Assembly: GCA_020055645.1 (NCBI GenBank)
Contig: CM034546.1
Location: forward strand, 29,326,001-29,390,000
Origin: Tomocerus qinae
Taxonomy: Eukaryota; Arthropoda; Collembola; Entomobryomorpha; Tomoceridae
Length of the DNA: 64,000 bases
Reading direction: 5' to 3'
The notes beneath the pieces are model-generated. The model searched no databases and had not been told where the DNA came from. It saw nothing but the letters and a program-made list of their open reading frames with translations. How positions within the stretch are numbered: position 1 is the stretch's first letter; the number at the start of each line of letters is the position of its first letter. Of the stretch, positions 1,519 through 56,441 are shown piece after piece. A program made the position numbers and the translations under genes.

Positions 1519-1520
1519 TA

Positions 1521-3815: not shown

Positions 3816-4077
3816 TACACATTGCGGTCCACTACTCGAATTTTGTCTCACTTTATTCTGTTAAAGAAAAGGAAAATGAGATCCAGGCCCAACTTATCAC
3901 TTCATCCTTTTCCGCGGCTAATTCAATTCAAACTTGTGTTGAAATGAAAACAATCATGCTTTTCTTCTCCTCTCAGTCTTCTCACTGTCTGCTCTGCGTT
4001 GTATTTTATTGAAAAATAGTTGTTTTTGAAGTTTTTGAGTTTTGCATTGGTAAAATCACGTTTCACCTACCGTTGTC

Positions 4078-28407: not shown

Positions 28408-28990
28408 GGTATCAACTATGGCAGCTCTGAAATGATATAAATACAATTAATGCAAACGTAAAAAAAACTGTTGACTGTTGTCAGAACTAAATATTTTGCC
28501 TAAGTGAATAAACGAGAGCTCACCCTCACTAATTACAATATATTGTCATATTGTCCTAGTTGTCCTACTAAATCCAGACAGAAATTATTCTAAAATTTAT
28601 CGACCCTTAAAATATAATATTATTTGTAAATCGAAGTTAATAATTTTGATTGAAGGATAGAAAGAAAATAAAAAATTCCCCATTCGAACATTAATCCGAT
28701 TCGTTTGTATCTATCGTTTCTATGTCCACTTTATTTTAAGCCTGCAATTTCTTCGCAGAGTCGCGGGGGACCTCTGAGTTGGTTGCCCGGCGCCCTGGGC
28801 GCAAGAAAAACCGATATTTGGTCGCCAAAAACGCCCAAAAACCGATATTTGGGCGGAGTCATGGATTAGATCCGCCATAAAGTAAGCTTTGAGCGTCCAG
28901 GTCGCCTAGAAGCCCCTCGGGACTCCCAAAGAAGAAATTGCAGGTCTGCTTTATTCACTATTTAAAAGGTAATTGCTTTTCAAGCGCAAG

Positions 28991-29811
28991 AGTAAATACA
29001 TAAGAGACCATGCAGGCTCGGAACAAAATGTCACAGCCAAAGTTGTTACTTTCAGATTCTAATCTACTTAGTGATATGAAAAAAACAATTTCAGGATTTT
29101 TTTTGAAAACCCGCCGTTTTTAAGTTAAGGCGGTTTTCCGCCTTATGTCGTTCATCTATGATTCATTTCTAAACTACTTGACCGATTTTCATGAAACCGG
29201 CGTCATTCTGCTCGCAAACGCTTTCATCACATGGCCCCCTTTTTAGTTTTTCAAAATTTTTTCAAAATTTTGAAAAAGATTTCGAAAAATTTCGAAAAAG
29301 AACTTTTTGAACGTTTTTATTAGAACTATTATTAAATGCGATAAAAATGCTAGTTCTGACCAAAAACTCAAAAGTGGTTTTCATTCATTAATTTTAATGG
29401 CTTTATTTTTGATATATACACCCTAATTATTGAGTTTTTGGTCAGAATTAGCGTTTTTATCGCATTTAATAATAGTTCTAATAAAAACGTTCAAAAAAAT
29501 TTTTTTTCGAAATTCTTCGAAATCTTTTTCAAAATTTTGAAAAAATTTTGAAAAACTAAAAAGGGGGCCATGTGATGAAAGCGTTTGCGAGCAGAATGGC
29601 GCCGGTTTCATGAAAATCGGTCAAGTAGTTTAGAAATGAATCATAGATGAACGACATAAGGCGGAAAACCGCCTTAACTTAAAAACGGCGGGTTTTCAAA
29701 AAAAATCCTGAAATTGTTTTTTTCATTTCACTAAGTAGATTAGAATCTGAAAGTAACAACTTTGGCTGTGACATTTTGTTCCGTGCCTGCATGGTCTCTT
29801 ATGTATTTACT
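28991..29811. mobile_element. 0.8-kb foldback element, AGTAAATA termini, copy 2
   Basis: Element of 821 bp with 5'-AG...CT-3' ends, flanked by a perfect 6-bp direct repeat CGCAAG (28985-28990 and 29812-29817). Arms of about 400 bp almost meet in the middle. Located upstream of the first coding exon of gene A. The terminus plus 6-bp duplication pattern is the same as for the giant palindrome at 38218. Confidence 0.85.
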
Positions 29812-30210
29812 CGCAAGTAAAAATTTTAAAGTTTAAAAGAAAGAAAAAAATCAGTTTAAAGTGATTTCTAATTTATAGATTCTGCTTTTGTATTAGTTTT
29901 GAAATAAAATGACAATTAGGAATGGTGAATGGGAACTATTCTCTTACCTTTTAGCTAGACGTTGTTTTACTTTTCAACAATATTAACAATTCAGATATGG
30001 TGTATTTTTTGCACAATACGTAAAGATTATTTCCTCCTTTGCGACCTTGAAATTAAAATACCCAATAATTATAATTATTTTCAAATTCAATGATAAATCC
30101 TATATTACACATAAATCTATACATAGTATATATGGTCGTACAATAAGTATTTCCTAAAACTAAACATAACCTAAATAGGTATTGTTAAAACAACCGATGT
30201 ACTCAAATAC

Positions 30211-38066: not shown

Positions 38067-38222
38067 ATGAATCATATAGCAGAATACAATAGGCTTATCT
38101 TGGACGAAAACTCGAAGCCGAGAACCAACGTGGGAGGTCCAACTGTTGCAATGATAAACTCAGATATATATCCACCTAAGAATTGCTCATTTTATAAAAA
38201 ATATTATTATATATGTAAGTAG
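38067..38222 (+). other. Possible coding exon next to the palindrome insertion
   Basis: After an acceptor-like TATTCACTAG (ends about 38060), an open frame starts MNHIAEYNRLILDENSKPRT and continues with VGGPTVAMINSD. Its composition looks coding, unlike the surrounding AT-rich DNA. The end of the frame runs into the 6-bp target duplication and the first bases of the giant element, where GTAAGT is created across the junction. I cannot assign a family, and no companion exon was identified. It may be a chance frame. Confidence 0.3.
38212..38217. repeat. Target site duplication, left (TATGTA)
   Basis: TATGTA immediately precedes the AGTAGGATG terminus of the giant palindrome and is repeated in direct orientation at 56436-56441. 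The flanks beyond it are unrelated. Confidence 0.9.
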
Positions 38223-38280
38223 GATGTGGGGTTAAGTTATGGAGCACACACTGGACAAATAGATTCAGTTTCAGCCATCT

Positions 38281-38421
38281 TTATTTAGGGGGAGTGGGCT
38301 GGGCTAGCCAACCCACCCACCCCCAGTCAGTCCCTACCAAAATTGGCGCCAAGTCATGCTTGGCGCCAATTCCTAAGAGCGGTAAAGCCATAAAAGCATA
38401 CAAGCAAGGCAGGAGAGGCAT
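38281..38421 (-). CDS. 46-codon micro-gene at left terminus of the palindrome
   Basis: Mirror copy of 56232-56372, reading outward to the left end. The ORF is intact and differs from the right copy by residue 8 (Tyr here, Leu there). Starts MPLLPCL, has a hydrophobic first 20 residues and a Trp-rich C-terminal part (WGWVGW). AATAAA overlaps the stop codon on the minus strand (38280-38285). Function unknown. A noncoding role for the transcript is possible. Confidence 0.5.
   Translation of the reverse strand: MPLLPCLYAFMALPLLGIGAKHDLAPILVGTDWGWVGWLAQPTPPK
38341..38371. promoter_or_regulatory. Paired TTGGCGCCAA palindromes (hairpin), left
   Basis: AATTGGCGCCAA, 7-nt spacer GTCATGC, TTGGCGCCAATT: a 12-bp inverted repeat whose halves are each self-complementary and match the E2F/DP consensus TTGGCGCCAA. 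Lies inside the micro-gene ORF. Could act as DNA site or RNA hairpin; role is inferred only. Confidence 0.6.
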
Positions 38422-38447
38422 GTTTCCAGCTCGGAGCATCGCACACG

Positions 38448-38482
38448 ACTGAGCTCCTGCTCCCCGAGTGCCGCTATTTATA
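38448..38482 (-). promoter_or_regulatory. Core promoter of left terminal micro-gene (TATA + initiator)
   Basis: On the minus strand, TATAAATAGC at 38482-38473 and the arthropod initiator TCAGT at 38452-38448, with +1 about 32 nt from the first T of TATA. Directs transcription outward toward the element end. Confidence 0.7.
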
Positions 38483-38950
38483 CCTCCCGTCCCCCTACCC
38501 AGGTTGTAGCTCCGCCTTAGTCTCTGCTGATTGGCTGCTGCCGGTCGTCCCCTCCTTCCCTTTGGAATATCCCTATAAGGGCCTACTATACTCTACTATA
38601 AAGCCTCCATGCTGTCACAGTAGTGATGTGATTCCTATGCTGCATGCTTCCCATGCCGCTTCACGATGCTCTGTTAGTACTCTCTACTCCACCTATTGCT
38701 ATTCTCTTGAACTATGCATTCCATGCAGCATGCTTCCCATACTACTCCTTAGTACTCTCCGCTCCACCTATCGCAATTATTTTGAACTATCACTATAACT
38801 ATACACTATGTGTATACTAACTATTCACTATACCTATACACTAGATGTATACTAGTTGTATAAATGAGTAAAACGTTGCTGCTTTGTTTCGAGAACGAGA
38901 GGCAAGCAAAGTGTCAGCCGGTAGTTCTCGACAACACAATGAGTTAATTA

Positions 38951-38984
38951 GCTTGACCATAGACTGAATAGTCAATGGTCAAGC
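38951..38984. repeat. 10-bp inverted repeat hairpin, left arm
   Basis: GCTTGACCAT and ATGGTCAAGC separated by 14 nt, mirrored at 55669-55702. Lies about 470 bp upstream of the micro-gene promoter. Function unknown. Confidence 0.6.
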
Positions 38985-39139
38985 GTTCAATAATGAATAA
39001 AAGAAGAGAGAATAATATTTGCTTGCGCTGTGAGTAGAGGTTGGGAAGAGACTGAGTGAAGATGAGGGTAGCTATTTTTAGATTTCTCCCCCTCTTTCGT
39101 TCACAGAACGTTCTCGATGCCAGATGTTTGTCTAAATCA

Positions 39140-40050
39140 TAGTAGGTATAACTATAGCTGTAGATATTATATATTCATGCTTTTAGGTAATAGATATACT
39201 TATAACTATGGACAGTAGATATAACTATAACATATATAACAATATATTTACAATAATTGTATCAATAAATGAGAATAAATATATTATATATTAATTAACT
39301 ACATGTTATTTATTTACATTAGGCATAATATCATATTTTATTTAATACTAATAGCATATGAATTACATATTATTTAATTGTATTATGCATATTATTATAT
39401 ATTTATAAATTACATACTATATAAAAGCATAAATATTATATAATATTATATATTATTTAATTCTATTACGCATATTATATAATTATATTAAGCATAATAT
39501 TTAATTATATTAAATATAACATAAATATTATATAATAACATATATTATTTAATTACATAAATTAGTTTCATTTACCTCTCATCAATTATTCATATAACAT
39601 TCAGGTAAAAATCTTTGCATTTCATTTTCTCATCTTTAGTTTTCATCAATTGAGTTAATTTTGGAACAACTCCTGGAAATAAATGAAAGAGTGGAAATCT
39701 TTAAAAAAAATTATGGATCGGAAAGAAATGGAAAATTTAACCAAGGAAAAGAAGGTTTTATATTAAAGTAGAAAATATTTCGTTGAAAGTGAGGATACTT
39801 AATGAAAATTTACCGATTTTCATTAAGAAATATAGATTTAGTTCTTGAAAGTGATAGAAATTAGGACATTTTAATGAAAATTACCCAATTTTCATTTAGA
39901 AAATACTAGAATTGATGATGAAAATGTAGTCCATTAGGAAGAAGTTTATTTCAAATAGAAAATATTTCCTTGAAAGTGATGGCACGTAATGAAAATTTAC
40001 CAATTTTCGTTAAAAAATATAGATTTTGTTGTTGAAAATGATGAAATTTA
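39140..40050. repeat. AT-rich low-complexity and ~200-bp degenerate repeats, left arm
   Basis: 39140-39560 is dense in TATTATATAATTATATTA-type sequence. About 39755-40050 holds a degenerate tandem repeat with shared blocks GAAAATATTTC, TTGAAAGTGA and AATGAAAATTTACC. Mirrored at about 54603-55513. No gene. Confidence 0.7.
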
Positions 40051-40093
40051 TGCTCAATATTATAAAAAAAGTGAGCTAAAAACATCGTGAAAC

Positions 40094-40735
40094 ATGCTGA
40101 AAACGGTCAAAAACACCGTAAAACACGATGATCACGACATACAAGCCTGTGAGTTTTCTTTAGGGTCCTCTATTTCGAAATTTATTTACTTTGAAGTATC
40201 TTTCGCTACCTATAACCCAACTCGTGGTGGGGGATTCATTCCCACACCAAAAGAATTAGAAGGGAAAGGTTTATTAAACATAGAAAATAAAGATAACTAT
40301 TGTTTTCTTTATTCTGTCTATGCCCACCTCCACCTCATAAAGGGAAACATGAGGGATAGGGTTAGACCAGAAAAAATATATGGACATGATGGTCCATCCA
40401 AACTACAAATTGGATATTGGGGACCTATCTTTTCCTGTAGCGATACAGGATTTTAGTAAGTTCGAACAGGTTGATAACTTGTCGATTAATATTTATAGCT
40501 ATAATTTAATTAGTGAAGATGCAATAGTTGTCTATCTAATAGTTATTCCAAAAATGTTACTAGGGAAAAGCATATATACTTATTGTTTCTCAAAGAGGAG
40601 GATAAGTTTCATTATTTATTAATTACAAATCTTTCTGCCTTTGTGGGCAACTATGTAGGTAATAAATATGACCTATGTAGGTTTTGTTTAAAAAAAGTTT
40701 ATCGTCAGAAAACCAATTTACGATGCTGAAACTCG
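40094..40735 (+). pseudogene. Decayed polymerase-N-terminal-like domain, left arm (copy 1)
   Basis: Fragments in three frames resemble the intact copy at 41991-43022 in order: a GLLNIENKDNYCFLYSV block (about 40270-40320), a FPVAIQDFSKFEQVDNLSIN block (about 40425-40490), and an LLITNLSAFV ... CRFCLKKVY block (about 40615-40720). In invertebrate large DNA transposons this block order precedes the family-B (protein-primed) polymerase domain; no polymerase motif follows here. At least two single-base frame changes, plus a terminal stop. The same breaks occur in the right arm, so decay preceded arm duplication or was homogenised. Confidence 0.65.
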
Positions 40736-40789
40736 ACGGCAAAGTACTATTGAGCAATATGACGCGTTAGATAATCATATGAAGTTCAC

Positions 40790-41829
40790 AGCATTTTTCA
40801 ACATAAGGCAATACTATCTGAGTGTTCAGAAAAATTTAGTAAAGCTTGGAATTTGAAGTTCATTTCAAATCTAAACATCCCTCAGTAAAGTATATTTTAA
40901 AAAAAATGGGAATAAAGAGAAAATTTAGAATCTCTATCCGTGGATTTTACTAGAACGCCGGTAACAGATCTAGCTGCCTTAGATGATCTCTCTCGAAAAT
41001 GGCAAGCGTGTTTTCCAGCAAATGGAATTTGGAAAGGCACTATTATATTTCTAAAAAATATTCGTAAAATAAGAACTTATTGTATACCATTAGAATAAGT
41101 TCACACAGGCAAAAAGCTATTTGAAGGTGAGAACATATCTCAATATAGAAGGTTAAAGATTCGCAGCAAGTGAATGACCGAAGGGGTAGACTGTCGTCTC
41201 ATGTCTCTTCGTCTCATCTCAAAGTCGTCTGTAATAAATGTCTGCAATAGCTGTCATAAAATAGAAGACAATGGAGAAAAAATCCATCTTACTCCAAACA
41301 ACTATATTACATCACCAAAACGGCTACGAGAAGAATCTTCAGATGAAGATTCGAATCATAGTTCCTCTAAACGCTCAGCAACGAGTGAATGTGACAGTGG
41401 GGATGAATATGATGCTCTCCCGTTACCTGTAATTAAAATGCTTCAACGCGTTGTTTACAACGCGGAATTTGGTTTTGTCAAATTGACAAAAAAACCATTT
41501 ACGACAGCTTCTTAATAATACAATTACGGAGGCTGATGTCTACCCTCCGGAGGAAGATGAAAGTTCTTCCTCGGAAAATGAATCTGGAACGTCCTCGGGA
41601 TCCGATGCTGATGATAAGTCTTCAGCCAGTGAAACTGAAAGCAGTTCAGGGAGCGAATCTGAGAACGGTAGCGAGGAGGATTCCGATGAGAGAGAATCTG
41701 ATAATACCAACGGCTCTGACAGCGAAGAAGACGACGAAAGGGGATGAAGAACTCACTACTGCAGGATTGGACATACTTCGAGTGGTGTTGAAAGCGGATG
41801 AAAAAGAAGGCTCCCGCGTACATAAGTAA
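40790..41829 (+). pseudogene. Decayed zinc-finger plus acidic region, left arm
   Basis: Around 40820-40930, fragments (CSEKFSKAWNLK, then a frame shift, HFKSKHPSVKYILKK) match the first finger of the C2H2 gene in the same arm (CARQFIQACNLKRHF...). From 41174 a frame holds VCNSCHKIEDNGEKIHL, related to another finger of that gene, then SSDEDSNHSSSKRS. At a run of seven A (41488-41494) coding character moves to another frame, a long Ser/Glu/Asp stretch to about 41745. It then shifts again to a frame ending at 41829. The breaks are shared by both arms. It could be a real frameshifted gene, or a decayed relative of the convergent C2H2 gene. Confidence 0.5.
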
Positions 41830-41990
41830 AGATGGGGAGACTACACGCACGCTACTTTGTATGCCCTAGCCGTAAAGTGTGGCAACTTTAACATGCTGAA
41901 GTTATTTAATTTCCAGTATACTATATACCCCTATAATATACAATCCTTTCATTTGGGCTTCAGTCCGACTCCAGACTTTGAAGACTAAAC

Positions 41991-43022
41991 ATGTTCACCC
42001 CAAAGGCTCTCAACGGAGGTATTCTCAAGGTATTAAATTTCTTAATCCTTGAGCTAAAAGATAAACCTCTAATTCCTTTTTTTAAATTTTAGTACAAGTG
42101 CTCTGCTAGGACGTGCTACTATCGTTCTCAACAGATGGAGCAACTAATACTGCACGCTCACAGTGTCCACGCTTGTACCGTTTCAGAGACAGCGTCAATA
42201 GAAAATTATACTTCCACCCTTGGAAAAAGTTTTGACAAGATTCCTACTGCTGAGACGGGGTTTGTGTTCCGTGCAAAGAAGTTGCCAAAGTTTAAAAATT
42301 TAGACGAGATTCAAGATTACTTGCAGCCGCATATAGTAGCAGTGCTGCAGGATATCATTCTCAACGGAGTAGAAGTAATGTTCGCCTTTACAGACTATGA
42401 AGAGAGGCAGGTTAAAACTCCTACATTTACTCTCATCAACATCAACCTTGTGCCATTTCTTCTAAATTCCGCTTTCCAGTTGATAAAGAGGCGGATAAAA
42501 TTAGTCTGGTCTCTGGACGTCTACATAAAGCAGCATTTGCCGCCTTTTTGTTATGGACATCTTGAGAAGCCGTCTGAATTAGAAGGAAGAGGAGGCCTAT
42601 TGAATATAAGAACAAAAGATTATTGTTCTCTAGGACATTGCATTTCTGCAAGTTTAAATCCTCGTGAAGGTCTATCTAAAACTAATCCAATTTACTACTC
42701 CCCTACACTAATTTCCTATGAAAACATAAATAATTATGACTTTTCGAAAATTGAAATTGAAAATAATATTACAATAAATATTTACACGTCAGCGAATGAT
42801 TGTGTATACCCGCTAGTAGTAACTAATCAGAGAGGAGTACCTACAGAGAGACACATCAATTTATTTTTAGTTAGATGTGGGAAAAAGGCGCACTATACTG
42901 TGATTACTAATCTCTCTCTCTTTCTAAAAAATTCTAAATCTAGGATTGATGTTTGTAAATTTTGTCTGAAAATGTTTTTCAATTCTTCAGAATTAGCAGA
43001 TCATCAAATGTTATGCATGTAA
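41991..43022 (+). CDS. Polymerase-N-terminal-like domain protein, left arm (intact)
   Basis: Two exons: 41991-42029 (MFTPKALNGGILK), intron 42030-42092 (GTATTA...TTTTAG), exon 42093-43022, phase 0, about 322 aa. The splice creates a C2H2-like finger YKCSARTCYYR...LILHAHSVHA. Further on are GGLLNIRTKDYCSLGHCI, YDFSKIEIENNITINIYT, VYPLVV, HINLFLV, HYTVITNLSLFL and a terminal finger CKFCLKMFF...ELADHQMLC. This block order is familiar from the region in front of the DNA_pol_B_2 domain in invertebrate mobile-element polymerases. The protein stops just after the finger, so the catalytic part is absent. Might act as a DNA-binding or accessory factor. Function inferred only. Confidence 0.7.
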
Positions 43023-43190
43023 ATTTCTCCCTATAATTGAGTACTGAATTATTTGTAATGAAAACTAAATTCTAAACTAAAATTATTTGTACAATGAAAA
43101 TGTTTTGTAAACTAAAATTATTTGTAATGAAAACTAAAATTATTTGTAATGAAAACTAAAAATTATTTCTAAATAAAATTATTGAATTGA

Positions 43191-45708
43191 TTATAAACAT
43201 CCTTTCTCTTTATGTGCTTCCATTAAATCGCAGTCAGTTGTGCGGAAGGTGCATGTAGAACACTCGGAGAGTTGTTGTTCGTGTTGGAGTATGCAGTGGA
43301 TTTCGTAAGCCGCGCGAGTGAAGAAGCTTTTCTCGCAATATGGGCAGTTGTATGCCGACAGTAGAAAAGGATTCTCACTATAAACATAAAATAGAATTAG
43401 CTAGAAATTGAATTTAGAAAATTAGCTTTAATGAAACTTACTGAAAAACTTTTCGATGCCGTTCCAACTTCTCTTCATTGTCTACTATTCTGTAGCAGGT
43501 ATTACAGATTATTTTTTTATGAGCAAAAGAGACGTGATCTTTTAATACTTTTACTCGGTCATACTTACTCGGGCAGATAGAGCACTCATAGGCCATTATG
43601 TGCGAGTGCATATGACGCTCCTTTTCCTTTCCCCCTTTCCAATCACAATAGGGACATTCATACTTCATTCTATCTGTTAATGTACATAATAACATATAAC
43701 GTAAGACAATAGCACAATAGCATAATAAACTGATAAAGCCTATACCTTTTTTTGATGTAACTTTTTTTCCTTTAGGAACTTCAATAGGCGGCGAGTAGCC
43801 GACTTGCATAATTTTCTCATGATATATAATTTTATGCAACAAGCAGTCAAGCTCCTTCTTAAACTGTTTATTGCAAGGCGGGCATTCAATTACTCCCCTA
43901 TCACAAAAACAAAGAAGGTCGTAATATAAGTAGGGCTCATGTAACTAAGACGAGTCATCGTCTAATAGGATCATATATAGTTAGGAGGGTCGTAATATAA
44001 GTAGGGTTCATGTAACTAAGACGAGTCGTCGTCTAATAGGATCATATATAGTTAGGAGGGTCGTAATATAAGTAGGACTCATGTAACTAAGACGAGTCAT
44101 CGTGTAATAGGATCAGATATAGTTAGGAGGGTCGTAATATAAGTAGGGCTCATGTAACTAAGACGAGTCATTGCCGAATAGGTTCATATATAGTTAGGAG
44201 GGTCGTCATATATAGAGAATAGGTACATATATGTGTATGGAGACTTGCATTGAGAATGGAGTGGGTCTAAGTACTGTACTTACGTTTCCCAAGTGCCTTC
44301 AAGTAGATTTTTATGTTTCACCCTCAGATGACATCGTAAGGTATCCACTCCAATTCCAGCATACTCGCAGTATAGGCATAAATATAGAGTTTGACCTATA
44401 GTAAATATTATATTTATATGGAAAAGAATTAAACGAGAAAACGAAATAAAAATGCTACCTTCAATTTGCGGCCTCTCGGTAAACTGCACTAATTCTTCAC
44501 CGTTTGGGAGAAGAAGTATTTTGCTATGGTAGACGATCTCATGAGCAGCTTTATCCCATTCCACGTTAAACTTCCTCCAACAGAATTGGCAAGGGATGTC
44601 GTTTTTACTTTAATTTAAATAATTTCTTCAAGATTCTTCATACTACGAATATCGTTTAATAAATAATAATACTTACTGCGCGGTGATGCGATGAGTTTTA
44701 ATCTCTTTCACGGTATCTTCAACATGTGTGCAGATAAAGCAAGCAAACTTAACATGAGTAAGCATACAGTGCTTCGCATATTCTTCTTTACTCCCAGTGG
44801 AGAATAGGCATAAAGTGCATTGAAGGGGTTTAAAATGCGCCATCAAATGCTTCTCCATCTTCAGAGGTAGAGACCGCTTCAGTTCACAGTACGGACACAC
44901 AAGTACACCGCAAACTATAAAAATGAAAAGATTATACTATTTTTTTTTTAGATTTTTTACTTTTTTAATATTTAGAATACAAACAAACTACGTTCACCTT
45001 TGGCAGGCCTTATTTTCTTTCTCTCGCCGAGTACATTCTGTTCCTCCGGCGGATTCAATTTTTATATTCCTCAGCGGAGGTATAGTTGACATAATGTTCA
45101 TTGATTTGTAGGAGTTCCTCCAGAGATAGCTCGATTGACGAGAATTGCATAGCATGCACTAGACGAGAATGCTCTCCTTCCACGTGAGCCGCAATTTTTT
45201 TAATTTTATCAAAGACATCTCCGCAGCCGCGGCATAAATAGTGCTGCCTAGGTAACTCTAAAAAAACAAGAGAACAAGTGAATGGAATAGTTACATTAAC
45301 TAGACTTAATCGAAAATCAAAATGAGATTACCTTCAATTAAAGATTGATTAACAGCTACCGTCCCGAATCCTTGCGCTTTCATTCTTTGCCAGGTAACTA
45401 TATTCTTCTCCTTAAAGGTACCTGTGTCCTGCTCTTTACTTTGCGGTTCCTCCGTTTCCCCTACATTCACAAGAACTTCCTCACTATATTCCACTTCACA
45501 CTCTAAATTTATTTTACTGTCAGCGGAATCACTGCTGACGAAAAACTTTACACAGAGGAGCTAAAAGTCCGTGCTTCCTCTTAATTATATTATTTTTAAA
45601 AATATATTTACACTCAGGGTGCTTCGCCAAAAAATGGCGTTTTAGATTGCACGCCTGAATAAATTGTCGGGCACATTCACCACACTGAAGACGCTTAGAG
45701 TTTTCCAT
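43191..45708 (-). CDS. Multi-C2H2 zinc-finger gene, left arm (frame broken in exon 1)
   Basis: Mirror of the eight-exon gene at 48948-51468. In exon 1 the run after CTGTGT is three A instead of five (about 45546-45554), a 2-base loss that shifts the frame. The rest of the exons and splice sites look intact. Finger 7 keeps its first cysteine here (LCLYCEYAG), while the right arm has tyrosine. Converges with the polymerase-N-terminal-like gene. Could be a sequencing or assembly indel. Confidence 0.65.
43920..44215. repeat. ~80-bp minisatellite in C2H2 gene intron, left arm
   Basis: About four units containing GGAGGGTCGTAATATAAGTA and CATGTAACTAAGACGAGTC, within the fifth intron of the left-arm C2H2 gene. 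Mirrored at about 50440-50745. Confidence 0.85.
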
Positions 45709-45974
45709 TTTATTTCACTCTCGGCAGACTACTGATCGACAGAACGGAGAGTAGAGAACAAATAAACTTAAGAAAGAAAGAAAAGAGAGAGCGAAGCGGG
45801 GAATGCGGCGTCCTTTTCAAGCTACGCCCTACTTCCCTTCAATTGGATAAGGGTACTTGGAAGGGAGAAGACTGGCGGTTATTCAAGCACACAGATGTAA
45901 ACCATATGTAACCTTCAAGAGATGCATAATAGCACTTTAAGATACATAGATATTTCTTATTATCATGTTGAAGA

Positions 45975-46645
45975 GACTTTTACTGTATAGAGGAACTTTA
46001 GTTTGGGGGGACTTTTATTATCTAGAGGAGCTATAGTTTGGGGGGGGACTTTCATTATTTAGAGGAGCTTTAGTTTGGGGGGACTTTTACTATATAGAGG
46101 AGCTTTAGTTTGGGGGGACTTTTATTATTTAGAGGAGCTTTAGGTTAGGGGGACTTTTATTATTTAGAGGAGCTTTAGATTGGGGGGACTTTTATTATTT
46201 AGAGGAGCTTCAGTTTGGGGGGACTTTTACTATATAGAGGAGCTTTAGTTTGGGGACTTTTATTATCTAGAGGAGCTTTAGGTTGGGGGGACTTTTATTA
46301 TCTAGAGGAGCTTTAGTTTAGGGGGACTTTTATTACCTAGAGGAGCTTCAGTTTGGGGGGACTTTTATTATTTAGAGGAGCTTTAGTTTGTGGGGACTTT
46401 TATTATTTAGAGGAGCTTTAGTTTGGGGGGACTTTTATTATTCAGAGGAGCTTTAGTTTGGGGGGACTTTTATTATTCAGAGGAGCTTTAGTTTGGGGGG
46501 GACTTTTATTATCTAGAGGAGCTTTAGTTTGGGGGGACTTTTATTATTTAGAGGAGGCCTTATGCTTTAGGGTCATAAAAGTCTAAGATGAGGCTTTATG
46601 CTTTAGGGTCGTATAAGTCTAAGATAAGGCTTTATGCTTTAGGGT
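45975..46645. repeat. 35-bp G-run minisatellite plus 36-bp repeats, left arm
   Basis: About 17 units of roughly 35 bp with the core GGGGGGACTTTTATTA and AGAGGAGCTTTAG, to about 46552, followed by three 36-bp units with GGCTTTATGCTTTAGGGTC. The right-arm counterpart lies at about 48050-48685 with two 36-bp units and a different mix of 35-bp variants. G-runs face C-runs across the palindrome. Confidence 0.9.
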
Positions 46646-47304
46646 CTGCTGAATTTCCAAAATTGATGAAACTATGGAAAGACTAGAAACAAACGCTGTA
46701 AATTCGGCTCTGGGTTGTATGTTTATTCAGTGACCGGTTTCCATATTCTTTTTCAAACTATATAAACAAAATAAACAAAATATTGCATATATTGTTAAAG
46801 TGAAAGGATTTTGCAAGTTGTAATCCAGTTGTTAATTTAAAACATAATTTGATTGCTAAACTGTATTTATGCCATCAGTGAAAGAAAATTACTCTTTACC
46901 TGAATTAATTACAGGGCCATATTCATTTACAATTTGATTAAGAGGTTGAAATCAGGTATAATTCGAATATTATGTGACAGTACTAAAAAATTTTGAAAAT
47001 TCAAATCAATAAATCAACTAAGCCAATGTGTTGATTGTGGAGAGACAATTTAAGCAAGGAGAATGTTTGAAACATCCTCGCGTTCTATAGAAATGAGTCT
47101 AACTTAAAATTTGTGTGTCTATTGAATTGCCCCTAAACTCAACCTTTACATAAAGATATAGGAAAGAAATCATTTTATATAAGTATTTAAACAGTTAACT
47201 TTTTTGTATGATATCACTAAATCCAAATCAGAAATTAAATGTTTATATTTCTGGTTCATACATTGGTCTAGTTCTTCAAGTAAACTTAGCTTAACTATTT
47301 TACC
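46646..47304. other. Inner left arm, no gene
   Basis: AT-rich sequence with no supported gene, mirrored at 47387-48050. Only the pairing itself is notable. Confidence 0.6.
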
Positions 47305-47386
47305 GACTTCAAATATTTTTAATGTTGCAAATGAAACATCAAAAAGTTATTTAGTAATTCCATTCTACAAATGTATACATGGATTT
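47305..47386. other. 82-bp unpaired loop at the palindrome centre
   Basis: Single-copy sequence between TTAACTATTTTACC (ends 47304) and GGTAAAATAGTTAA (starts 47387). AT-rich, starts GACTTCAAATATTTTTAATG. It stays open in one frame through both arm edges, but that frame is itself partly a mirror of the arms, so I do not call a gene. Confidence 0.85.
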
Positions 47387-48049
47387 GGTAAAATAGTTAA
47401 GCTAAGTTTACTTGAAGAACTAGACCAATGTATGAACCAGAAATATAAACATTTAATTTCTGATTTGGATTTAGTGATATCATACAAAAAAGTTAACTGT
47501 TTAAATACTTATATAAAATGATTTCTTTCCTATATCTTTATGTAAAGGTTGAGTTTAGGGGCAATTCAATAGACACACAAATTTTAAGTTAGACTCATTT
47601 CTATAGAACGCGAGGATGTTTCAAACATTCTCCTTGCTTAAATTGTCTCTCCACAATCAACACATTGGCTTAGTTGATTTATTGATTTGAATTTTCAAAA
47701 TTTTTTAGTACTGTCACATAATATTCGAATTATACCTGATTTCAACCTCTTAATCAAATTGTAAATGAATATGGCCCTGTAATTAATTCAGGTAAAGAGT
47801 AATTTTCTTTCACTGATGGCATAAATACAGTTTAGCAATCAAATTATGTTTTAAATTAACAACTGGATTACAACTTGCAAAATCCTTTCACTTTAACAAT
47901 ATATGCAATATTTTGTTTATTTTGTTTATATAGTTTGAAAAAGAATATGGAAACCGGTCACTGAATAAACATACAACCCAGAGCCGAATTTACAGCGTTT
48001 GTTTCTAGTCTTTCCATAGTTTCATCAATTTTGGAAATTCAGCAGACCC

Positions 48050-48685
48050 TAAAGCATAAAGCCTCATCTTAGACTTATACGACCCTAAAGCATAAGGCCT
48101 CCTCTAAATAATAAAAGTCCCCCCAAACTAAAGCTCCTCTAGATAATAAAAGTCCCCCCCAAACTAAAGCTCCTCTGAATAATAAAAGTCCCCCCAAACT
48201 AAAGCTCCTCTGAATAATAAAAGTCCCCCCAAACTAAAGCTCCTCTAAATAATAAAAGTCCCCACAAACTAAAGCTCCTCTAAATAATAAAAGTCCCCCC
48301 AAACTGAAGCTCCTCTAGGTAATAAAAGTCCCCCTAAACTAAAGCTCCTCTAGATAATAAAAGTCCCCCCAACCTAAAGCTCCTCTAGATAATAAAAGTC
48401 CCCCAAACTAAAGCTCCTCTATATAGTAAAAGTCCCCCAAACTGAAGCTCCTCTAGGTAATAAAAGTCCCCTAAACTAAAGCTCCTCTAGATAATAAAAG
48501 TCCCCCAAACTAAAGCTCCTCTAAATAATAAAAGTCCCCCCAAACTAAAGCTCCTCTATATAGTAAAAGTCCCCCCAAACTGAAGCTCCTCTAAATAATA
48601 AAAGCCCCCCCCCCCCAACCTAAAGCTCCTCTAGATAATAAAAGTCCCCCCAACCTGAAGCTCCTCTAGATAATAAAAGTCCCCC
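48050..48685. repeat. 35-bp C-run minisatellite plus 36-bp repeats, right arm
   Basis: Complement of the left-arm array, core TAATAAAAGTCCCCCC and CTAAAGCTCCTCT. One site (about 48604-48617) has a run of about 14 C. Unit order differs from the left arm, so the arrays have mutated separately after the arms formed. Confidence 0.9.
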
Positions 48686-48947
48686 CAACATGATAATAAG
48701 AAATATCTATGTATCTTAAAGTGCTATTATGCATCTCTTGAAGGTTACATATGGTTTACATCTGTGTGCTTGAATAACCGCCAGTCTTCTCCCTTCCAAG
48801 TACCCTTATCCAATTGAAGGGAAGTAGGGCGTAGCTTGAAAAGGACGCCGCATTCCCCGCTTCGCTCTCTCTTTTCTTTCTTTCTTAAGTTTATTTGTTC
48901 TCTACTCTCCGTTCTGTCGATCAGTAGTCTGCCGAGAGTGAAATAAA

Positions 48948-51468
48948 ATGGAAAACTCTAAGCGTCTTCAGTGTGGTGAATGTGCCCGACAATTTATTCA
49001 GGCGTGCAATCTAAAACGCCATTTTTTGGCGAAGCACCCTGAGTGTAAATATATTTTTAAAAATAATATAATTAAGAGGAAGCACGGACTTTTAGCTCCT
49101 CTGTGTAAAAAGTTTTTCGTCAGCAGTGATTCCGCTGACAGTAAAATAAATTTAGAGTGTGAAGTGGAATATAGTGAGGAAGTTCTTGTGAATGTAGGGG
49201 AAACGGAGGAACCGCAAAGTAAAGAGCAGGACACAGGTACCTTTAAGGAGAAGAATATAGTTACCTGGCAAAGAATGAAAGCGCAAGGATTCGGGACGGT
49301 AGCTGTTAATCAATCTTTAATTGAAGGTAATCTCATTTTGATTTTCGATTAAGTCTAGTTAATGTAACTATTCCATTCACTTGTTCTCTTGTTTTTTTAG
49401 AGTTACCTAGGCAGCACTATTTATGCCGCGGCTGCGGAGATGTCTTTGATAAAATTAAAAAAATTGCGGCTCACGTGGAAGGAGAGCATTCTCGTCTAGT
49501 GCATGCTATGCAATTCTCGTCAATCGAGCTATCTCTGGAGGAACTCCTACAAATCAATGAACATTATGTCAACTATACCTCCGCTGAGGAATATAAAAAA
49601 TTGAATCCGCCGGAGGAACAGAATGTACTCGGCGAGAGAAAGAAAATAAGGCCTGCCAAAGGTGAACGTAGTTTGTTTGTATTCTAAATATTAAAAAAGT
49701 AAAAAATCTAAAAAAAAAATAGTATAATCTTTTCATTTTTATAGTTTGCGGTGTACTTGTGTGTCCGTACTGTGAACTGAAGCGGTCTCTACCTCTGAAG
49801 ATGGAGAAGCATTTGATGGCGCATTTTAAACCCCTTCAATGCACTTTATGCCTATTCTCCACTGGGAGTAAAGAAGAATATGCGAAGCACTGTATGCTTA
49901 CTCATGTTAAGTTTGCTTGCTTTATCTGCACACATGTTGAAGATACCGTGAAAGAGATTAAAACTCATCGCATCACCGCGCAGTAAGTATTATTATTTAT
50001 TAAACGATATTCGTAGTATGAAGAATCTTGAAGAAATTATTTAAATTAAAGTAAAAACGACATCCCTTGCCAATTCTGTTGGAGGAAGTTTAACGTGGAA
50101 TGGGATAAAGCTGCTCATGAGATCGTCTACCATAGCAAAATACTTCTTCTCCCAAACGGTGAAGAATTAGTGCAGTTTACCGAGAGGCCGCAAATTGAAG
50201 GTAGCATTTTTATTTCGTTTTCTCGTTTAATTCTTTTCCATATAAATATAATATTTACTATAGGTCAAACTCTATATTTATACCTATACTGCGAGTATGC
50301 TGGAATTGGAGTGGATACCTTACGATGTCATCTGAGGGTGAAACATAAAAATCTACTTGAAGGCACTTGGGAAACGTAAGTACAGTACTTAGACCCACTC
50401 CATTCTCAATGCAAGTCTCCATACACATATATGTACCTATTCTCTATATATGACGACCCTCCTAACTATATATGAACCTATTCGGCAATGACTCGTCTTA
50501 GTTACATGAGCCCTACTTATATTACGACCCTCCTAACTATATCTGATCCTATTACACGATGACTCGTCTTAGTTACATGAGTCCTACTTATATTACGACC
50601 CTCCTAACTATATATGATCCTATTAGACGACGACTCGTCTTAGTTACATGAACCCTACTTATATTACGACCCTCCTAACTATATATGATCCTATTAGACG
50701 ATGACTCGTCTTAGTTACATGAGCCCTACTTATATTACGACCTTCTTTGTTTTTGTGATAGGGGAGTAATTGAATGCCCGCCTTGCAATAAACAGTTTAA
50801 GAAGGAGCTTGACTGCTTGTTGCATAAAATTATATATCATGAGAAAATTATGCAAGTCGGCTACTCGCCGCCTATTGAAGTTCCTAAAGGAAAAAAAGTT
50901 ACATCAAAAAAAGGTATAGGCTTTATCAGTTTATTATGCTATTGTGCTATTGTCTTACGTTATATGTTATTATGTACATTAACAGATAGAATGAAGTATG
51001 AATGTCCCTATTGTGATTGGAAAGGGGGAAAGGAAAAGGAGCGTCATATGCACTCGCACATAATGGCCTATGAGTGCTCTATCTGCCCGAGTAAGTATGA
51101 CCGAGTAAAAGTATTAAAAGATCACGTCTCTTTTGCTCATAAAAAAGTAATCTGTAATACCTGCTACAGAATAGTAGACAATGAAGAGAAGTTGGAACGG
51201 CATCGAAAAGTTTTTCAGTAAGTTTCATTAAAGCTAATTTTCTAAATTCAATTTCTAGCTAATTCTATTTTATGTTTATAGTGAGAATCCTTTTCTACTG
51301 TCGGCATACAACTGCCCATATTGCGAGAAAAGCTTCTTCACTCGCGCGGCTTACGAAATCCACTGCATACTCCAACACGAACAACAACTCTCCGAGTGTT
51401 CTACATGCACCTTCCGCACAACTGACTGCGATTTAATGGAAGCACATAAAGAGAAAGGATGTTTATAA
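48948..51468 (+). CDS. Eight-exon multi-C2H2 zinc-finger gene, right arm (intact frame)
   Basis: Exons 48948-49326, 49401-49661, 49745-49982, 50052-50200, 50264-50375, 50762-50913, 50986-51217 and 51282-51468, with all seven junctions GT-AG and in phase, give about 569 aa. Starts MENSKRLQCGECARQF. About 12-13 fingers of C-x2-C-x12-H-x3-5-H(C) type, for example CPYCELKRS, CTLCLFSTG, CQFCWRKF, CPPCNKQF, CPYCDWKG, CSICPSKY and CPYCEKSF, without TGEKP linkers, plus an acidic stretch in exon 1. The seventh finger has Tyr in place of its first Cys (LYLYLYCEY). A TCAGT initiator-like site at 48921 lies just before the start; no TATA. The largest intron holds an 80-bp minisatellite. Nuclear DNA-binding role is likely; it may bind the element itself (inference). 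Confidence 0.75.
50440..50745. repeat. ~80-bp minisatellite in C2H2 gene intron, right arm
   Basis: About four units containing GACTCGTCTTAGTTACATGA and TACTTATATTACGACCCTCC, inside the intron 50376-50761. Mirror of 43920-44215. Confidence 0.85.
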
Positions 51469-51636
51469 TCAATTCAATAATTTTATTTAGAAATAATTTT
51501 TAGTTTTCATTACAAATAATTTTAGTTTTCATTACAAATAATTTTAGTTTACAAAACATTTTCATTGTACAAATAATTTTAGTTTAGAATTTAGTTTTCA
51601 TTACAAATAATTCAGTACTCAATTATAGGGAGAAAT

Positions 51637-52666
51637 TTACATGCATAACATTTGATGATCTGCTAATTCTGAAGAATTGAAAAACATTTTCAGACAAAAT
51701 TTACAAACATCAATCCTAGATTTAGAATTTTTAGAAAGAGAGAGAGATTAGTAATCACAGTATAGTGCGCCTTTTTCCCACATCTAACTAAAAATAAATT
51801 GATGTGTCTCTCTGTAGGTACTCCTCTCTGATTAGTTACTACTAGCGGGTATACACAATCATTCGCTGACGTGTAAATATTTATTGTAATATTATTTTCA
51901 ATTTCAATTTTCGAAAAGTCATAATTATTTATGTTTTCATAGGAAATTAGTGTAGGGGAGTAGTAAATTGGATTAGTTTTAGATAGACCTTCACGAGGAT
52001 TTAAACTTGCAGAAATGCAATGTCCTAGAGAACAATAATCTTTTGTTCTTATATTCAATAGGCCTCCTCTTCCTTCTAATTCAGACGGCTTCTCAAGATG
52101 TCCATAACAAAAGGCGGCAAATGCTGCTTTATGTAGACGTCCAGAGACCAGACTAATTTTATCCGCCTCTTTATCAACTGGAAAGCGGAATTTAGAAGAA
52201 ATGGCACAAGGTTGATGTTGATGAGAGTAAATGTAGGAGTTTTAACCTGCCTCTCTTCATAGTCTGTAAAGGCGAACATTACTTCTACTCCGTTGAGAAT
52301 GATATCCTGCAGCACTGCTACTATATGCGGCTGCAAGTAATCTTGAATCTCGTCTAAATTTTTAAACTTTGGCAACTTCTTTGCACGGAACACAAACCCC
52401 GTCTCAGCAGTAGGAATCTTGTCAAAACTTTTTCCAAGGGTGGAAGTATAATTTTCTATTGACGCTGTCTCTGAAACGGTACAAGCGTGGACACTGTGAG
52501 CGTGCAGTATTAGTTGCTCCATCTGTTGAGAACGATAGTAGCACGTCCTAGCAGAGCACTTGTACTAAAATTTAAAAAAAGGAATTAGAGGTTTATCTTT
52601 TAGCTCAAGGATTAAGAAATTTAATACCTTGAGAATACCTCCGTTGAGAGCCTTTGGGGTGAACAT
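51637..52666 (-). pseudogene. Polymerase-N-terminal-like gene, right arm (two 1-base losses)
   Basis: Mirror of 41991-43022 with the same small intron. Relative to the left arm it lacks one T in a homopolymer (four instead of five, about 52110) and one A near the 3' end (five instead of six, about 51733), so the frame is broken twice. Otherwise the sequence reads the same. Either inactivated or affected by homopolymer calling. Confidence 0.7.
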
Positions 52667-52827
52667 GTTTAGTCTTCAAAGTCTGGAGTCGGACTGAAGC
52701 CCAAATGAAAGGATTGTATATTATAGGGGTATATAGTATACTGGAAATTAAATAACTTCAGCATGTTAAAGTTGCCACACTTTACGGCTAGGGCATACAA
52801 AGTAGCGTGCGTGTAGTCTCCCCATCT

Positions 52828-53866
52828 TTACTTATGTACGCGGGAGCCTTCTTTTTCATCCGCTTTCAACACCACTCGAAGTATGTCCAATCCTGCAGTA
52901 GTGAGTTCTTCATCCCCTTTCGTCGTCTTCTTCGCTGTCAGAGCCGTTGGTATTATCAGATTCTCTCTCATCGGAATCCTCCTCGCTACCGTTCTCAGAT
53001 TCGCTCCCTGAACTGCTTTCAGTTTCACTGGCTGAAGACTTATCATCAGCATCGGATCCCGAGGACGTTCCAGATTCATTTTCCGAGGAAGAACTTTCAT
53101 CTTCCTCCGGAGGGTAGACATCAGCCTCCGTAATTGTATTATTAAGAAGCTGTCGTAAATGGTTTTTTTGTCAATTTGACAAAACCAAATTCCGCGTTGT
53201 AAACAACGCGTTGAAGCATTTTAATTACAGGTAACGGGAGAGCATCATATTCATCCCCACTGTCACATTCACTCGTTGCTGAGCGTTTAGAGGAACTATG
53301 ATTCGAATCTTCATCTGAAGATTCTTCTCGTAGCCGTTTTGGTGATGTAATATAGTTGTTTGGAGTAAGATGGATTTTTTCTCCATTGTCTTCTATTTTA
53401 TGACAGCTATTGCAGACATTTATTACAGACGACTTTGAGATGAGACGAAGAGACATGAGACGACAGTCTACCCCTTCGGTCATTCACTTGCTGCGAATCT
53501 TTAACCTTCTATATTGAGATATGTTCTCACCTTCAAATAGCTTTTTGCCTGTGTGAACTTATTCTAATGGTATACAATAAGTTCTTATTTTACGAATATT
53601 TTTTAGAAATATAATAGTGCCTTTCCAAATTCCATTTGCTGGAAAACACGCTTGCCATTTTCGAGAGAGATCATCTAAGGCAGCTAGATCTGTTACCGGC
53701 GTTCTAGTAAAATCCACGGATAGAGATTCTAAATTTTCTCTTTATTCCCATTTTTTTAAAATATACTTTACTGAGGGATGTTTAGATTTGAAATGAACTT
53801 CAAATTCCAAGCTTTACTAAATTTTTCTGAACACTCAGATAGTATTGCCTTATGTTGAAAAATGCT
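52828..53866 (-). pseudogene. Decayed zinc-finger plus acidic region, right arm
   Basis: Mirror of 40790-41829, with the same frame changes, including the run of seven A (as T here, about 53163-53169). I see no difference from the left arm within the readable frames. Confidence 0.5.
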
Positions 53867-53920
53867 GTGAACTTCATATGATTATCTAACGCGTCATATT
53901 GCTCAATAGTACTTTGCCGT

Positions 53921-54562
53921 CGAGTTTCAGCATCGTAAATTGGTTTTCTGACGATAAACTTTTTTTAAACAAAACCTACATAGGTCATATTTATTACCTA
54001 CATAGTTGCCCACAAAGGCAGAAAGATTTGTAATTAATAAATAATGAAACTTATCCTCCTCTTTGAGAAACAATAAGTATATATGCTTTTCCCTAGTAAC
54101 ATTTTTGGAATAACTATTAGATAGACAACTATTGCATCTTCACTAATTAAATTATAGCTATAAATATTAATCGACAAGTTATCAACCTGTTCGAACTTAC
54201 TAAAATCCTGTATCGCTACAGGAAAAGATAGGTCCCCAATATCCAATTTGTAGTTTGGATGGACCATCATGTCCATATATTTTTTCTGGTCTAACCCTAT
54301 CCCTCATGTTTCCCTTTATGAGGTGGAGGTGGGCATAGACAGAATAAAGAAAACAATAGTTATCTTTATTTTCTATGTTTAATAAACCTTTCCCTTCTAA
54401 TTCTTTTGGTGTGGGAATGAATCCCCCACCACGAGTTGGGTTATAGGTAGCGAAAGATACTTCAAAGTAAATAAATTTCGAAATAGAGGACCCTAAAGAA
54501 AACTCACAGGCTTGTATGTCGTGATCATCGTGTTTTACGGTGTTTTTGACCGTTTTCAGCAT
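53921..54562 (-). pseudogene. Decayed polymerase-N-terminal-like domain, right arm (copy 1)
   Basis: Mirror of 40094-40735 with identical frame breaks. The conserved blocks appear in the same order on the minus strand. Confidence 0.65.
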
Positions 54563-54602
54563 GTTTCACGATGTTTTTAGCTCACTTTTATAATATTGAG
54601 CA

Positions 54603-55513
54603 TAAATTTCATCATTTTCAACAACAAAATCTATATTTTTTAACGAAAATTGGTAAATTTTCATTACGTGCCATCACTTTCAAGGAAATATTTTCTATTT
54701 GAAATAAACTTCTTCCTAATGGACTACATTTTCATCATCAATTCTAGTATTTTCTAAATGAAAATTGGGTAATTTTCATTAAAATGTCCTAATTTCTATC
54801 ACTTTCAAGAACTAAATCTATATTTCTTAATGAAAATCGGTAAATTTTCATTAAGTATCCTCACTTTCAACGAAATATTTTCTACTTTAATATAAAACCT
54901 TCTTTTCCTTGGTTAAATTTTCCATTTCTTTCCGATCCATAATTTTTTTTAAAGATTTCCACTCTTTCATTTATTTCCAGGAGTTGTTCCAAAATTAACT
55001 CAATTGATGAAAACTAAAGATGAGAAAATGAAATGCAAAGATTTTTACCTGAATGTTATATGAATAATTGATGAGAGGTAAATGAAACTAATTTATGTAA
55101 TTAAATAATATATGTTATTATATAATATTTATGTTATATTTAATATAATTAAATATTATGCTTAATATAATTATATAATATGCGTAATAGAATTAAATAA
55201 TATATAATATTATATAATATTTATGCTTTTATATAGTATGTAATTTATAAATATATAATAATATGCATAATACAATTAAATAATATGTAATTCATATGCT
55301 ATTAGTATTAAATAAAATATGATATTATGCCTAATGTAAATAAATAACATGTAGTTAATTAATATATAATATATTTATTCTCATTTATTGATACAATTAT
55401 TGTAAATATATTGTTATATATGTTATAGTTATATCTACTGTCCATAGTTATAAGTATATCTATTACCTAAAAGCATGAATATATAATATCTACAGCTATA
55501 GTTATACCTACTA
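54603..55513. repeat. AT-rich low-complexity and degenerate repeats, right arm
   Basis: Mirror of 39140-40050. No gene. Confidence 0.7.
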
Positions 55514-55668
55514 TGATTTAGACAAACATCTGGCATCGAGAACGTTCTGTGAACGAAAGAGGGGGAGAAATCTAAAAATAGCTACCCTCATCTTCACTCA
55601 GTCTCTTCCCAACCTCTACTCACAGCGCAAGCAAATATTATTCTCTCTTCTTTTATTCATTATTGAAC

Positions 55669-55702
55669 GCTTGACCATTGACTATTCAGTCTATGGTCAA
55701 GC
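55669..55702. repeat. 10-bp inverted repeat hairpin, right arm
   Basis: GCTTGACCAT and ATGGTCAAGC with a 14-nt spacer, mirror of 38951-38984. Confidence 0.6.
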
Positions 55703-56170
55703 TAATTAACTCATTGTGTTGTCGAGAACTACCGGCTGACACTTTGCTTGCCTCTCGTTCTCGAAACAAAGCAGCAACGTTTTACTCATTTATACAACTA
55801 GTATACATCTAGTGTATAGGTATAGTGAATAGTTAGTATACACATAGTGTATAGTTATAGTGATAGTTCAAAATAATTGCGATAGGTGGAGCGGAGAGTA
55901 CTAAGGAGTAGTATGGGAAGCATGCTGCATGGAATGCATAGTTCAAGAGAATAGCAATAGGTGGAGTAGAGAGTACTAACAGAGCATCGTGAAGCGGCAT
56001 GGGAAGCATGCAGCATAGGAATCACATCACTACTGTGACAGCATGGAGGCTTTATAGTAGAGTATAGTAGGCCCTTATAGGGATATTCCAAAGGGAAGGA
56101 GGGGACGACCGGCAGCAGCCAATCAGCAGAGACTAAGGCGGAGCTACAACCTGGGTAGGGGGACGGGAGG

Positions 56171-56205
56171 TATAAATAGCGGCACTCGGGGAGCAGGAGC
56201 TCAGT
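56171..56205 (+). promoter_or_regulatory. Core promoter of right terminal micro-gene (TATA + initiator)
   Basis: TATAAATAGC at 56171-56180 and TCAGT at 56201-56205, placing +1 (the A at 56203) 32 nt after the first T of TATA, which is the classic spacing. Upstream DNA is unusually GC-rich for this window. The 5' leader to the ATG would be 29 nt. Confidence 0.75.
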
Positions 56206-56231
56206 CGTGTGCGATGCTCCGAGCTGGAAAC

Positions 56232-56372
56232 ATGCCTCTCCTGCCTTGCTTGCTTGCTTTTATGGCTTTACCGCTCTTAGGAATTGGCGCCAAGCATGAC
56301 TTGGCGCCAATTTTGGTAGGGACTGACTGGGGGTGGGTGGGTTGGCTAGCCCAGCCCACTCCCCCTAAATAA
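56232..56372 (+). CDS. 46-codon micro-gene at right terminus of the palindrome
   Basis: A compact transcription unit reading outward: TATA, initiator, short leader, ATG in the context GAAACATGC, 46 codons, stop TAA inside the poly(A) signal AATAAA (56368-56373), then a GT-rich stretch (CAGTGTGTGCT, about 56400) about 27 nt later. Everything fits within the terminal 265 bp. The peptide has a hydrophobic N-terminal 20 residues (MPLLPCLLAFMALPLLGIGA), then a short charged KHD and a Trp/Pro-rich end. This could be a signal-anchored or secreted micropeptide. The ORF is open in both arms despite other indels. Function is unknown, and coding status needs transcript or peptide evidence. Confidence 0.5.
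   Translation: MPLLPCLLAFMALPLLGIGAKHDLAPILVGTDWGWVGWLAQPTPPK
56282..56312. promoter_or_regulatory. Paired TTGGCGCCAA palindromes (hairpin), right
   Basis: AATTGGCGCCAA, spacer GCATGAC, TTGGCGCCAATT. Mirror of 38341-38371. Each half matches the E2F/DP consensus; together they form a 12-bp stem. Confidence 0.6.
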
Positions 56373-56435
56373 AGATGGCTGAAACTGAATCTATTTGTCC
56401 AGTGTGTGCTCCATAACTTAACCCCACATCCTACT

Positions 56436-56441
56436 TATGTA
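56436..56441. repeat. Target site duplication, right (TATGTA)
   Basis: Direct repeat of 38212-38217, immediately after the CCTACT terminus. Confidence 0.9.

What the first reader, a model, noticed from the sequence alone, without database searches (positions are those of the whole stretch)
38218..56435. An 18-kb mobile element that is 99.5% palindrome
Seen directly: 9-kb inverted arms, near-identical, separated by only 82 bp and ending exactly at a 6-bp target duplication. Known Polintons have terminal repeats of roughly 0.1-1 kb around a unique gene block; here the whole gene content is inside the repeats. Inference: the element arose from a head-to-head dimer or by template switching of a linear hairpin or protein-primed intermediate, and now propagates as a giant hairpin-capable unit. 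A transposon type whose whole coding content sits in mirrored arms would be unusual.
Basis: partly seen in the sequence, partly recalled or inferred. Interest (0 to 1): 0.93.

Follow-up and report, generated by a model that had tools for sequence, protein, structure and literature searches.

The report
Fold-back palindromic Polinton-like element
An 18-kb mobile element is a real mirror image of itself, most likely made when one half of a virus-like transposon folded back on a 9-base seed; this copy looks like a one-off, but the same genome carries a separate family of mirrored elements, with a polymerase gene in each half, that has spread.

Summary
Arms 38218-47304 and 47387-56435 mirror each other around an 82-bp loop, between TATGTA duplications and unrelated flanks; outside a 35-bp array they differ by nine small events in 7.75 kb.

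The window element is a solitary rearrangement. Its arm is one end-half of conventional Polinton-like elements; the nearest (C1:79.21-79.24 Mb, TSD TATGTT) carries it once at 98-99.6%. 1 of 8 loci with an arm-internal probe is mirrored. The centre is another repeat (X). Native X has a 9-bp inverted repeat 82-83 bp apart (4 of 6 copies), exactly where the mirror starts: a snap-back signature. Fold-back before integration is favoured, not proven.

Unexpectedly, the genome also holds a mirrored PolB family. C1:67600607-67613550, the one copy read throughout, has 6.5-kb arms 99.4-99.8% identical, an open 1448-aa PolB frame in one and a broken one in the other. In 15 of 28 loci the PolB probe is an inverted pair. 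Seven of 8 family members whose ends I read have different 6-bp duplications. Mirrored elements with coding arms do transpose here, though this one apparently has not.

The parts
38212..38217 (.). left copy of the 6-bp target site duplication, TATGTA
38218..47304 (+). left arm (read as the self-templated copy)
   Evidence: colinearity with X lies on the other arm
38218..39203 (+). terminal part shared with both ends of conventional relatives (their TIR, about 0.9-1.2 kb); starts AGTAGG
40091..40456 (+). 121-codon open frame; overlaps a stretch that resembles a small N-terminal piece of the PolB of the mirrored PolB family (34% over 58 aa); no catalytic PolB
42093..43022 (+). 309-codon open frame, weak C2H2 finger at its end (below cut-off); shorter in the right arm, which has a 1-base indel there
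43438..43944 (-). C2H2 zinc-finger-like open frame (zf-C2H2_4 1.2e-5, just under cut-off)
45975..46556 (+). 35-bp tandem array, left copy (the least symmetric part of the arms)
46645..47304 (+). end portion of repeat X, left-arm copy
47296..47304 (+). 9-bp seed, TATTTTACC
47305..47386 (.). 82-bp unpaired loop; colinear with X on the right-arm side
47387..47395 (+). 9-bp seed partner, GGTAAAATA
47387..48046 (-). end portion of repeat X, right-arm copy (colinear with the loop)
48099..48688 (-). 35-bp tandem array, right copy
47387..56435 (-). right arm (read as the original half)
56436..56441 (.). right copy of the 6-bp target site duplication, TATGTA

Best explanation
The element is a non-autonomous, palindromic derivative of a Polinton-like element. 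A parent carried an insertion of repeat X next to the 35/36-bp array of one end-half. During replication of its linear DNA, a strand that starts at the right terminus and runs inward stopped, or was broken, inside X. Its 3' end GGTAAAATA paired with TATTTTACC 82 bases upstream on the same strand and primed synthesis back over itself to the terminus. The hairpin was copied into an 18.2-kb duplex with the same terminus at both ends, and an integrase of Polinton type inserted it with a 6-bp duplication. Shown: mirrored arms, TSD, single-arm relatives, the X centre, the 9-bp native inverted repeat, which arm is colinear with X, no second locus with the junction. Inferred: that fold-back happened on an extrachromosomal linear molecule, and that the integrase acted in trans. 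This copy shows no sign of having multiplied in this assembly.
For: Arms, loop and TSD. Arm present once in the TSD-flanked 79.2-Mb relative and in other relatives. Six X copies with five different flanks start at the same base, within one. Native X has the 9-bp inverted repeat at 82-83 bp in 4 of 6 copies read. Loop plus right arm are colinear with X, the left arm is not: the polarity expected of a terminus-primed strand that snaps back. The 79.2-Mb relative has two different ends (AGTAGGATGTGG and AGTAGGGGGGTA), while the window has the right type at both ends up to the TSD, which favours a palindrome formed before insertion. A separate family shows that mirrored DNA is inserted here with 6-bp duplications: 7 of 8 members whose ends I read.
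Against: No X-bearing single-arm parent was found in the assembly, which an in-place event would explain more simply. The different ends of the 79.2-Mb copy may be peculiar to it: three other relatives have ends 96-97.5% identical. The 35-bp arrays of the two arms differ much more than the rest. Two of six X copies have a changed 9-bp repeat. No reads, no second individual and no related species could be examined.
Confidence: 0.6

Rival explanations
1. In-place conversion: a complete element with X inserted at this site first; replication or repair folded back in X and left through homology between the two terminal repeats, replacing the left half by a mirror of the right half and keeping the old duplication.
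For: Explains the TSD and the absence of an X-bearing parent elsewhere. Terminal repeats of about 0.9-1.2 kb in relatives give enough homology. Arms differ from each other far less than from the 79.2-Mb relative, so mirroring is much younger than the split from it.
Against: Needs a second switch at the terminal repeat; if the parent had two end types like the 79.2-Mb relative, the outermost left bases should be left-type, and they are right-type to the last base.
Confidence: 0.3
2. Assembly artefact: one arm is a fold-back or a mis-join.
For: A single assembly without reads; one other palindrome (C9) has mirrored flanks and could be such a case.
Against: Flanks are not mirrored, the TSD is exact, and both arms carry private differences. 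Other mirrored elements with their own TSDs exist in the genome.
Confidence: 0.05
3. The mirrored 18-kb element is itself a propagating transposon type, with other copies lost or missed.
For: A separate PolB family does this in the same genome.
Against: 1 of 8 loci with the arm probe is mirrored (9 of 9 candidates scored; the copies at 40.06 and 40.12 Mb, 63 kb apart in opposite orientation, are counted as two elements); no second locus has the junction; 0 of 4 loci of the other half are mirrored.
Confidence: 0.05

Closest known systems
Polinton/Maverick elements
   Same: 6-bp target duplication, AGT-type termini, terminal inverted repeats; other elements in this genome have PolB, and one read in part has an rve-like frame (below the curated cut-off). 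PMC8097293 (passages) gives 6-bp TSDs, (AGT)2 end motifs, TIRs 46-1447 bp.
   Different: Here the inverted repeat is the whole element apart from 82 bp; no catalytic PolB or integrase was detected in the window arms.
Symmetric recombinants of adenovirus and palindromic deletion forms of yeast linear killer plasmids (both recalled; searches did not bring them up)
   Same: Protein-primed linear DNA that turned into an inverted dimer of one end, in the adenovirus case with foreign DNA at the centre (recalled)
   Different: Extrachromosomal there; here integrated with a TSD, and a related family has multiplied
Foldback/Galileo-type elements (PMC3573991, start of abstract in listing)
   Same: Long, internally repetitive inverted repeats
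   Different: Galileo is placed with the P-element group in that abstract; the ends and 6-bp TSD here are of Polinton type
Palindromic insertions as scored in pangenomes (PMC11202377, passages)
   Same: That paper defines a class of insertions with TIRs over more than 90% of their length
   Different: The Mavericks it describes in those passages are conventional, with TIRs and separate PolB, integrase, ATPase and capsid genes

Membership tests
Polinton/Maverick (window element) | 6-bp target site duplication | tested here: met
   TATGTA on both sides
Polinton/Maverick (window element) | terminal inverted repeats with AGT-type ends | tested here: met
   AGTAGG at both ends; relatives have AGTAG ends
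Polinton/Maverick (window element) | protein-primed PolB gene | tested here: not met
   no PF03175 match between C1:29364218 and 29382435 among 83 listed (91 of 108 candidates scored); only an N-terminal-like piece
Polinton/Maverick (window element) | retroviral-type integrase, ATPase, protease, capsid genes | tested here: not met
   10 of the 30 left-arm frames listed were scanned against Pfam (some as sub-stretches): zinc-finger matches below cut-off and chance-level ones; smaller or split exons not excluded
Polinton/Maverick (window element) | unique gene block between the terminal repeats | tested here: not met
   only 82 bp is unpaired
Polinton/Maverick (mirrored PolB family) | PolB of the organellar and viral type | tested here: met
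   PF03175 E 2.3e-14 for L032:3373-4896
Polinton/Maverick (mirrored PolB family) | integrase gene | tested here: inconclusive
   in the one copy read throughout, the only frames of 120 aa or more lie in the PolB span; no rve search was run on it; a conventional relative has an rve-like frame, E 1.9e-6, below the curated cut-off
Polinton/Maverick (mirrored PolB family) | 6-bp target site duplication | tested here: met
   7 of 8 members whose ends were read; C9 has mirrored flanks instead
Foldback (FB/Galileo) elements | P-superfamily transposase | not tested
   no transposase match in the 10 frames scanned; no dedicated search made

The most novel reading that the evidence does not exclude
This genome hosts a class of mobile elements whose unit of inheritance is a single arm: a PolB gene with one Polinton-type end, carried as a near-perfect palindrome, each displaced strand folding into a full-length hairpin that restores a single replication origin, with integration supplied in trans by conventional Polintons. 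The window element is an independent fresh birth of such a palindrome, caught with its 9-bp seed still readable.
Probability: 0.45. Interest if true: 0.87.

Novelty: new variant of a known kind. Interest (0 to 1): 0.72.

Why it matters
It gives an integrated example in which the birth of a giant palindrome from a virus-like transposon can be read base by base (donor repeat, seed, polarity, insertion footprint), and it led to a family in which mirrored, gene-bearing elements have multiplied. Long perfect palindromes are usually thought unstable (recalled), so a lineage that lives as one bears on how protein-primed elements replicate, how half-genomes can become satellites of full ones, and how repeat libraries may misread such elements.

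Tried and rejected
Considered and rejected: simple read fold-back (flanks unmirrored, exact TSD, private changes in both arms); two separate head-to-head insertions (one TSD pair around the whole, X mirrored too); an ordinary element with long TIRs (three relatives have 0.9-1.2 kb); X as a Helitron (the TC start did not hold in all six copies). X resembles a Penelope-like retroelement by motifs that I recall, but Pfam scans of two of its frames and a PDB search of one gave no support, so I leave it as X. PDB search of the PolB piece gave nothing useful. A scan of viral contigs with that piece found no relative. PHROGs added only weak transposase-like hits to the integrase frame. Paper searches (20 of 44 listed; 20 of 58; 12 of 37; 7 of 7; none; 5 of 5), in open-licence PMC only and seen as listings, showed no paper on palindromic Polintons; searches did not bring up the recalled adenovirus and yeast plasmid cases. 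The first TSD look at 51.6M and C4 failed because the ends lay outside the fetched stretch; with further stretches they were found. The host was not identified.
Full report
Observation. Self-BLAST and a global alignment of the arms confirm the palindrome: left arm 38218-47304, loop 47305-47386, right arm 47387-56435. TATGTA lies directly outside both ends. From 38218 to 45970 there are nine differences; the 35-bp array differs more; the inner 658 bp are identical. Polarised against the nearest relative, private changes fall in both arms, and both arms together differ from that relative at about 30 substituted positions, far more than from each other, so mirroring is younger than the split from it.

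What the arm is. Conventional relatives carry it once. The 79.2-Mb copy (TSD TATGTT) matches 38216-46646 in one half at 98.2-99.6%, with an insertion at 39335, and its other end matches only the terminal region (38280-39507) plus a 52-bp piece. Relatives at 33.7, 40.1 and 5.8 Mb have TIRs of about 0.9-1.2 kb, 96-97.5% identical, and their own TSDs GTTGCT, TATGTA and ACCATT. An internal probe (42135-42900) finds 9 matches at 8 loci; only the window is an inverted pair. A probe from the other half finds 5 matches at 4 loci, none paired. The arm frames are small, several with C2H2-like fingers below Pfam's cut-off; one stretch resembles a short N-terminal part of a Polinton PolB at 34%. No PF03175 match lies within the element.

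What the centre is. The loop and inner arms belong to repeat X. Six X copies read start at the same base, within one, with five different flanks (two copies share theirs). In X the sequence of the right arm runs on through the loop; the left inner arm is not colinear. At the switch point native X has TATTTTACC, 82-83 bases, GGTAAAATA in 4 of 6 copies read; two have small changes there. The central 292 bases of the window fold as single-stranded DNA at -121 kcal/mol against -22 for shuffles, as a palindrome must. The probe across the array/X junction has 33 matches genome-wide; only the two in this element cross the junction by more than 8 bases.

Mechanism. A strand beginning at the right terminus and growing inward, ending in GGTAAAATA, can fold on TATTTTACC and copy itself back to the terminus. 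That gives exactly this molecule and fixes which arm is the original. The 6-bp duplication then comes from integration. The alternative is fold-back in place with exit through the terminal repeats. The nearest relative has two different ends whereas the window has one type at both ends to the last base; this favours a palindrome made before insertion, conditionally, since other relatives have matching ends. Against it, no X-bearing parent was found.

A mirrored family in the same genome. The PF03175 search gave 83 matches, with six convergent pairs a few kb apart by my reading. C1:67600607-67613550 (12,944 bp), the one copy that I read throughout, is a complete palindrome: arm segments of 5.2 and 1.0 kb are 99.8% and 99.4% identical, broken by a 48-bp stretch present on one side only, with an imperfect hairpin at the centre, AGTAGT ends and TSD TTTGTT. 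One arm has an open 1448-aa PolB frame; in the other the span is broken into frames of 1076, 279 and 127 aa. A probe from the PolB 3' end toward the centre matched 28 loci by my grouping: 15 are inverted pairs around a common centre, 5 have the centre-proximal segment in one orientation only, and 8 lack it apart from bits of at most 52 bp and are single; 40 of 67 candidates were scored, so these are lower bounds. The centre matches 30 places, 10 of them over at least 250 of its 309 bases; 23 of 30 match on both strands, which by itself says little since the query is self-complementary. In three further copies the inner 3-4 kb is self-complementary at 99.0, 97.1 and 99.1%. In a PolB piece from four palindromes (of the 15) each arm is 99.7-100% identical to its own mirror and 82-93% to other copies. 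Not every copy is so even: the two arms of C3:45.94M lie at 94% and 88% from the probe and must have drifted apart. Ends were read in eight members: six with the inverted PolB pair and two (41.4M, 136.0M) known only by mirrored ends around the family centre. TSDs are TTTGTT, TGTTCT, CTAAAT, ATGAAT, CATTAT, CTAATT and ATGCAT for seven; the eighth, on C9, has mirrored flanks and no evident TSD. A shared centre with different TSDs means that these transposed as palindromes; near-identical arms mean that the mirror is renewed in each cycle or kept by conversion after insertion, which I cannot tell apart. A conventional relative at 112.5 Mb has an rve-like frame (E 1.9e-6, under the curated cut-off) and weak adenovirus-protease and A32-ATPase matches; the mirrored arm showed only PolB among frames of 120 aa or more, so integration in trans is likely but inferred.

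Comparison. Vertebrate Mavericks have TIRs of 46-1447 bp, 6-bp TSDs and (AGT)2 ends (PMC8097293, passages). The ends and TSD here are of that kind; the architecture is not. By features the window element is not a full Polinton (no PolB, no integrase detected) but a derivative mobilised like one. I recall symmetric adenovirus recombinants and palindromic yeast plasmids as the nearest in mechanism; no call confirmed them.

Verdict. Real, well explained as a fold-back event, solitary in this assembly; the surprising part is the mirrored PolB family beside it.

Noticed in passing
L029:718-5935, L030:835-6010 and five further pairs: A 5.2-kb non-autonomous family with AGTAGG ends, 1.9-kb inverted arms around a 1.4-kb centre; flanking 6-mers of the two copies read match (ACTAAC; CACACT).
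   Followed up: partly
C9:30240-42630 (L047, L048): One mirrored PolB palindrome has its flanking DNA mirrored as well: a chromosomal inverted duplication or an assembly fold-back.
   Followed up: partly
window 1519-2571 / 2766-3817: Inverted repeat with 1,053-bp arms, 96.8% identical, 194 bp apart.
   Followed up: no
window 26096-26896 and 28990-29812: Two related repeats, each itself palindromic (85% and 95%).
   Followed up: no
L025:800-7279: Two copies of repeat X in inverted orientation with at least 2.3-kb arms.
   Followed up: no
C1:79211603-79235280: TSD-flanked Polinton-like element whose two ends are of different subtypes, as if recombinant; it also carries an insertion of about 3.7 kb with an RVT_1 match.
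   Followed up: partly
C1:136042859-136048505 and C1:41421867-41435810: A short (5.6 kb) and a divergent (13.9 kb) element, each with mirrored ends around the family centre and its own TSD (CTAATT; ATGCAT); interiors not read.
   Followed up: partly
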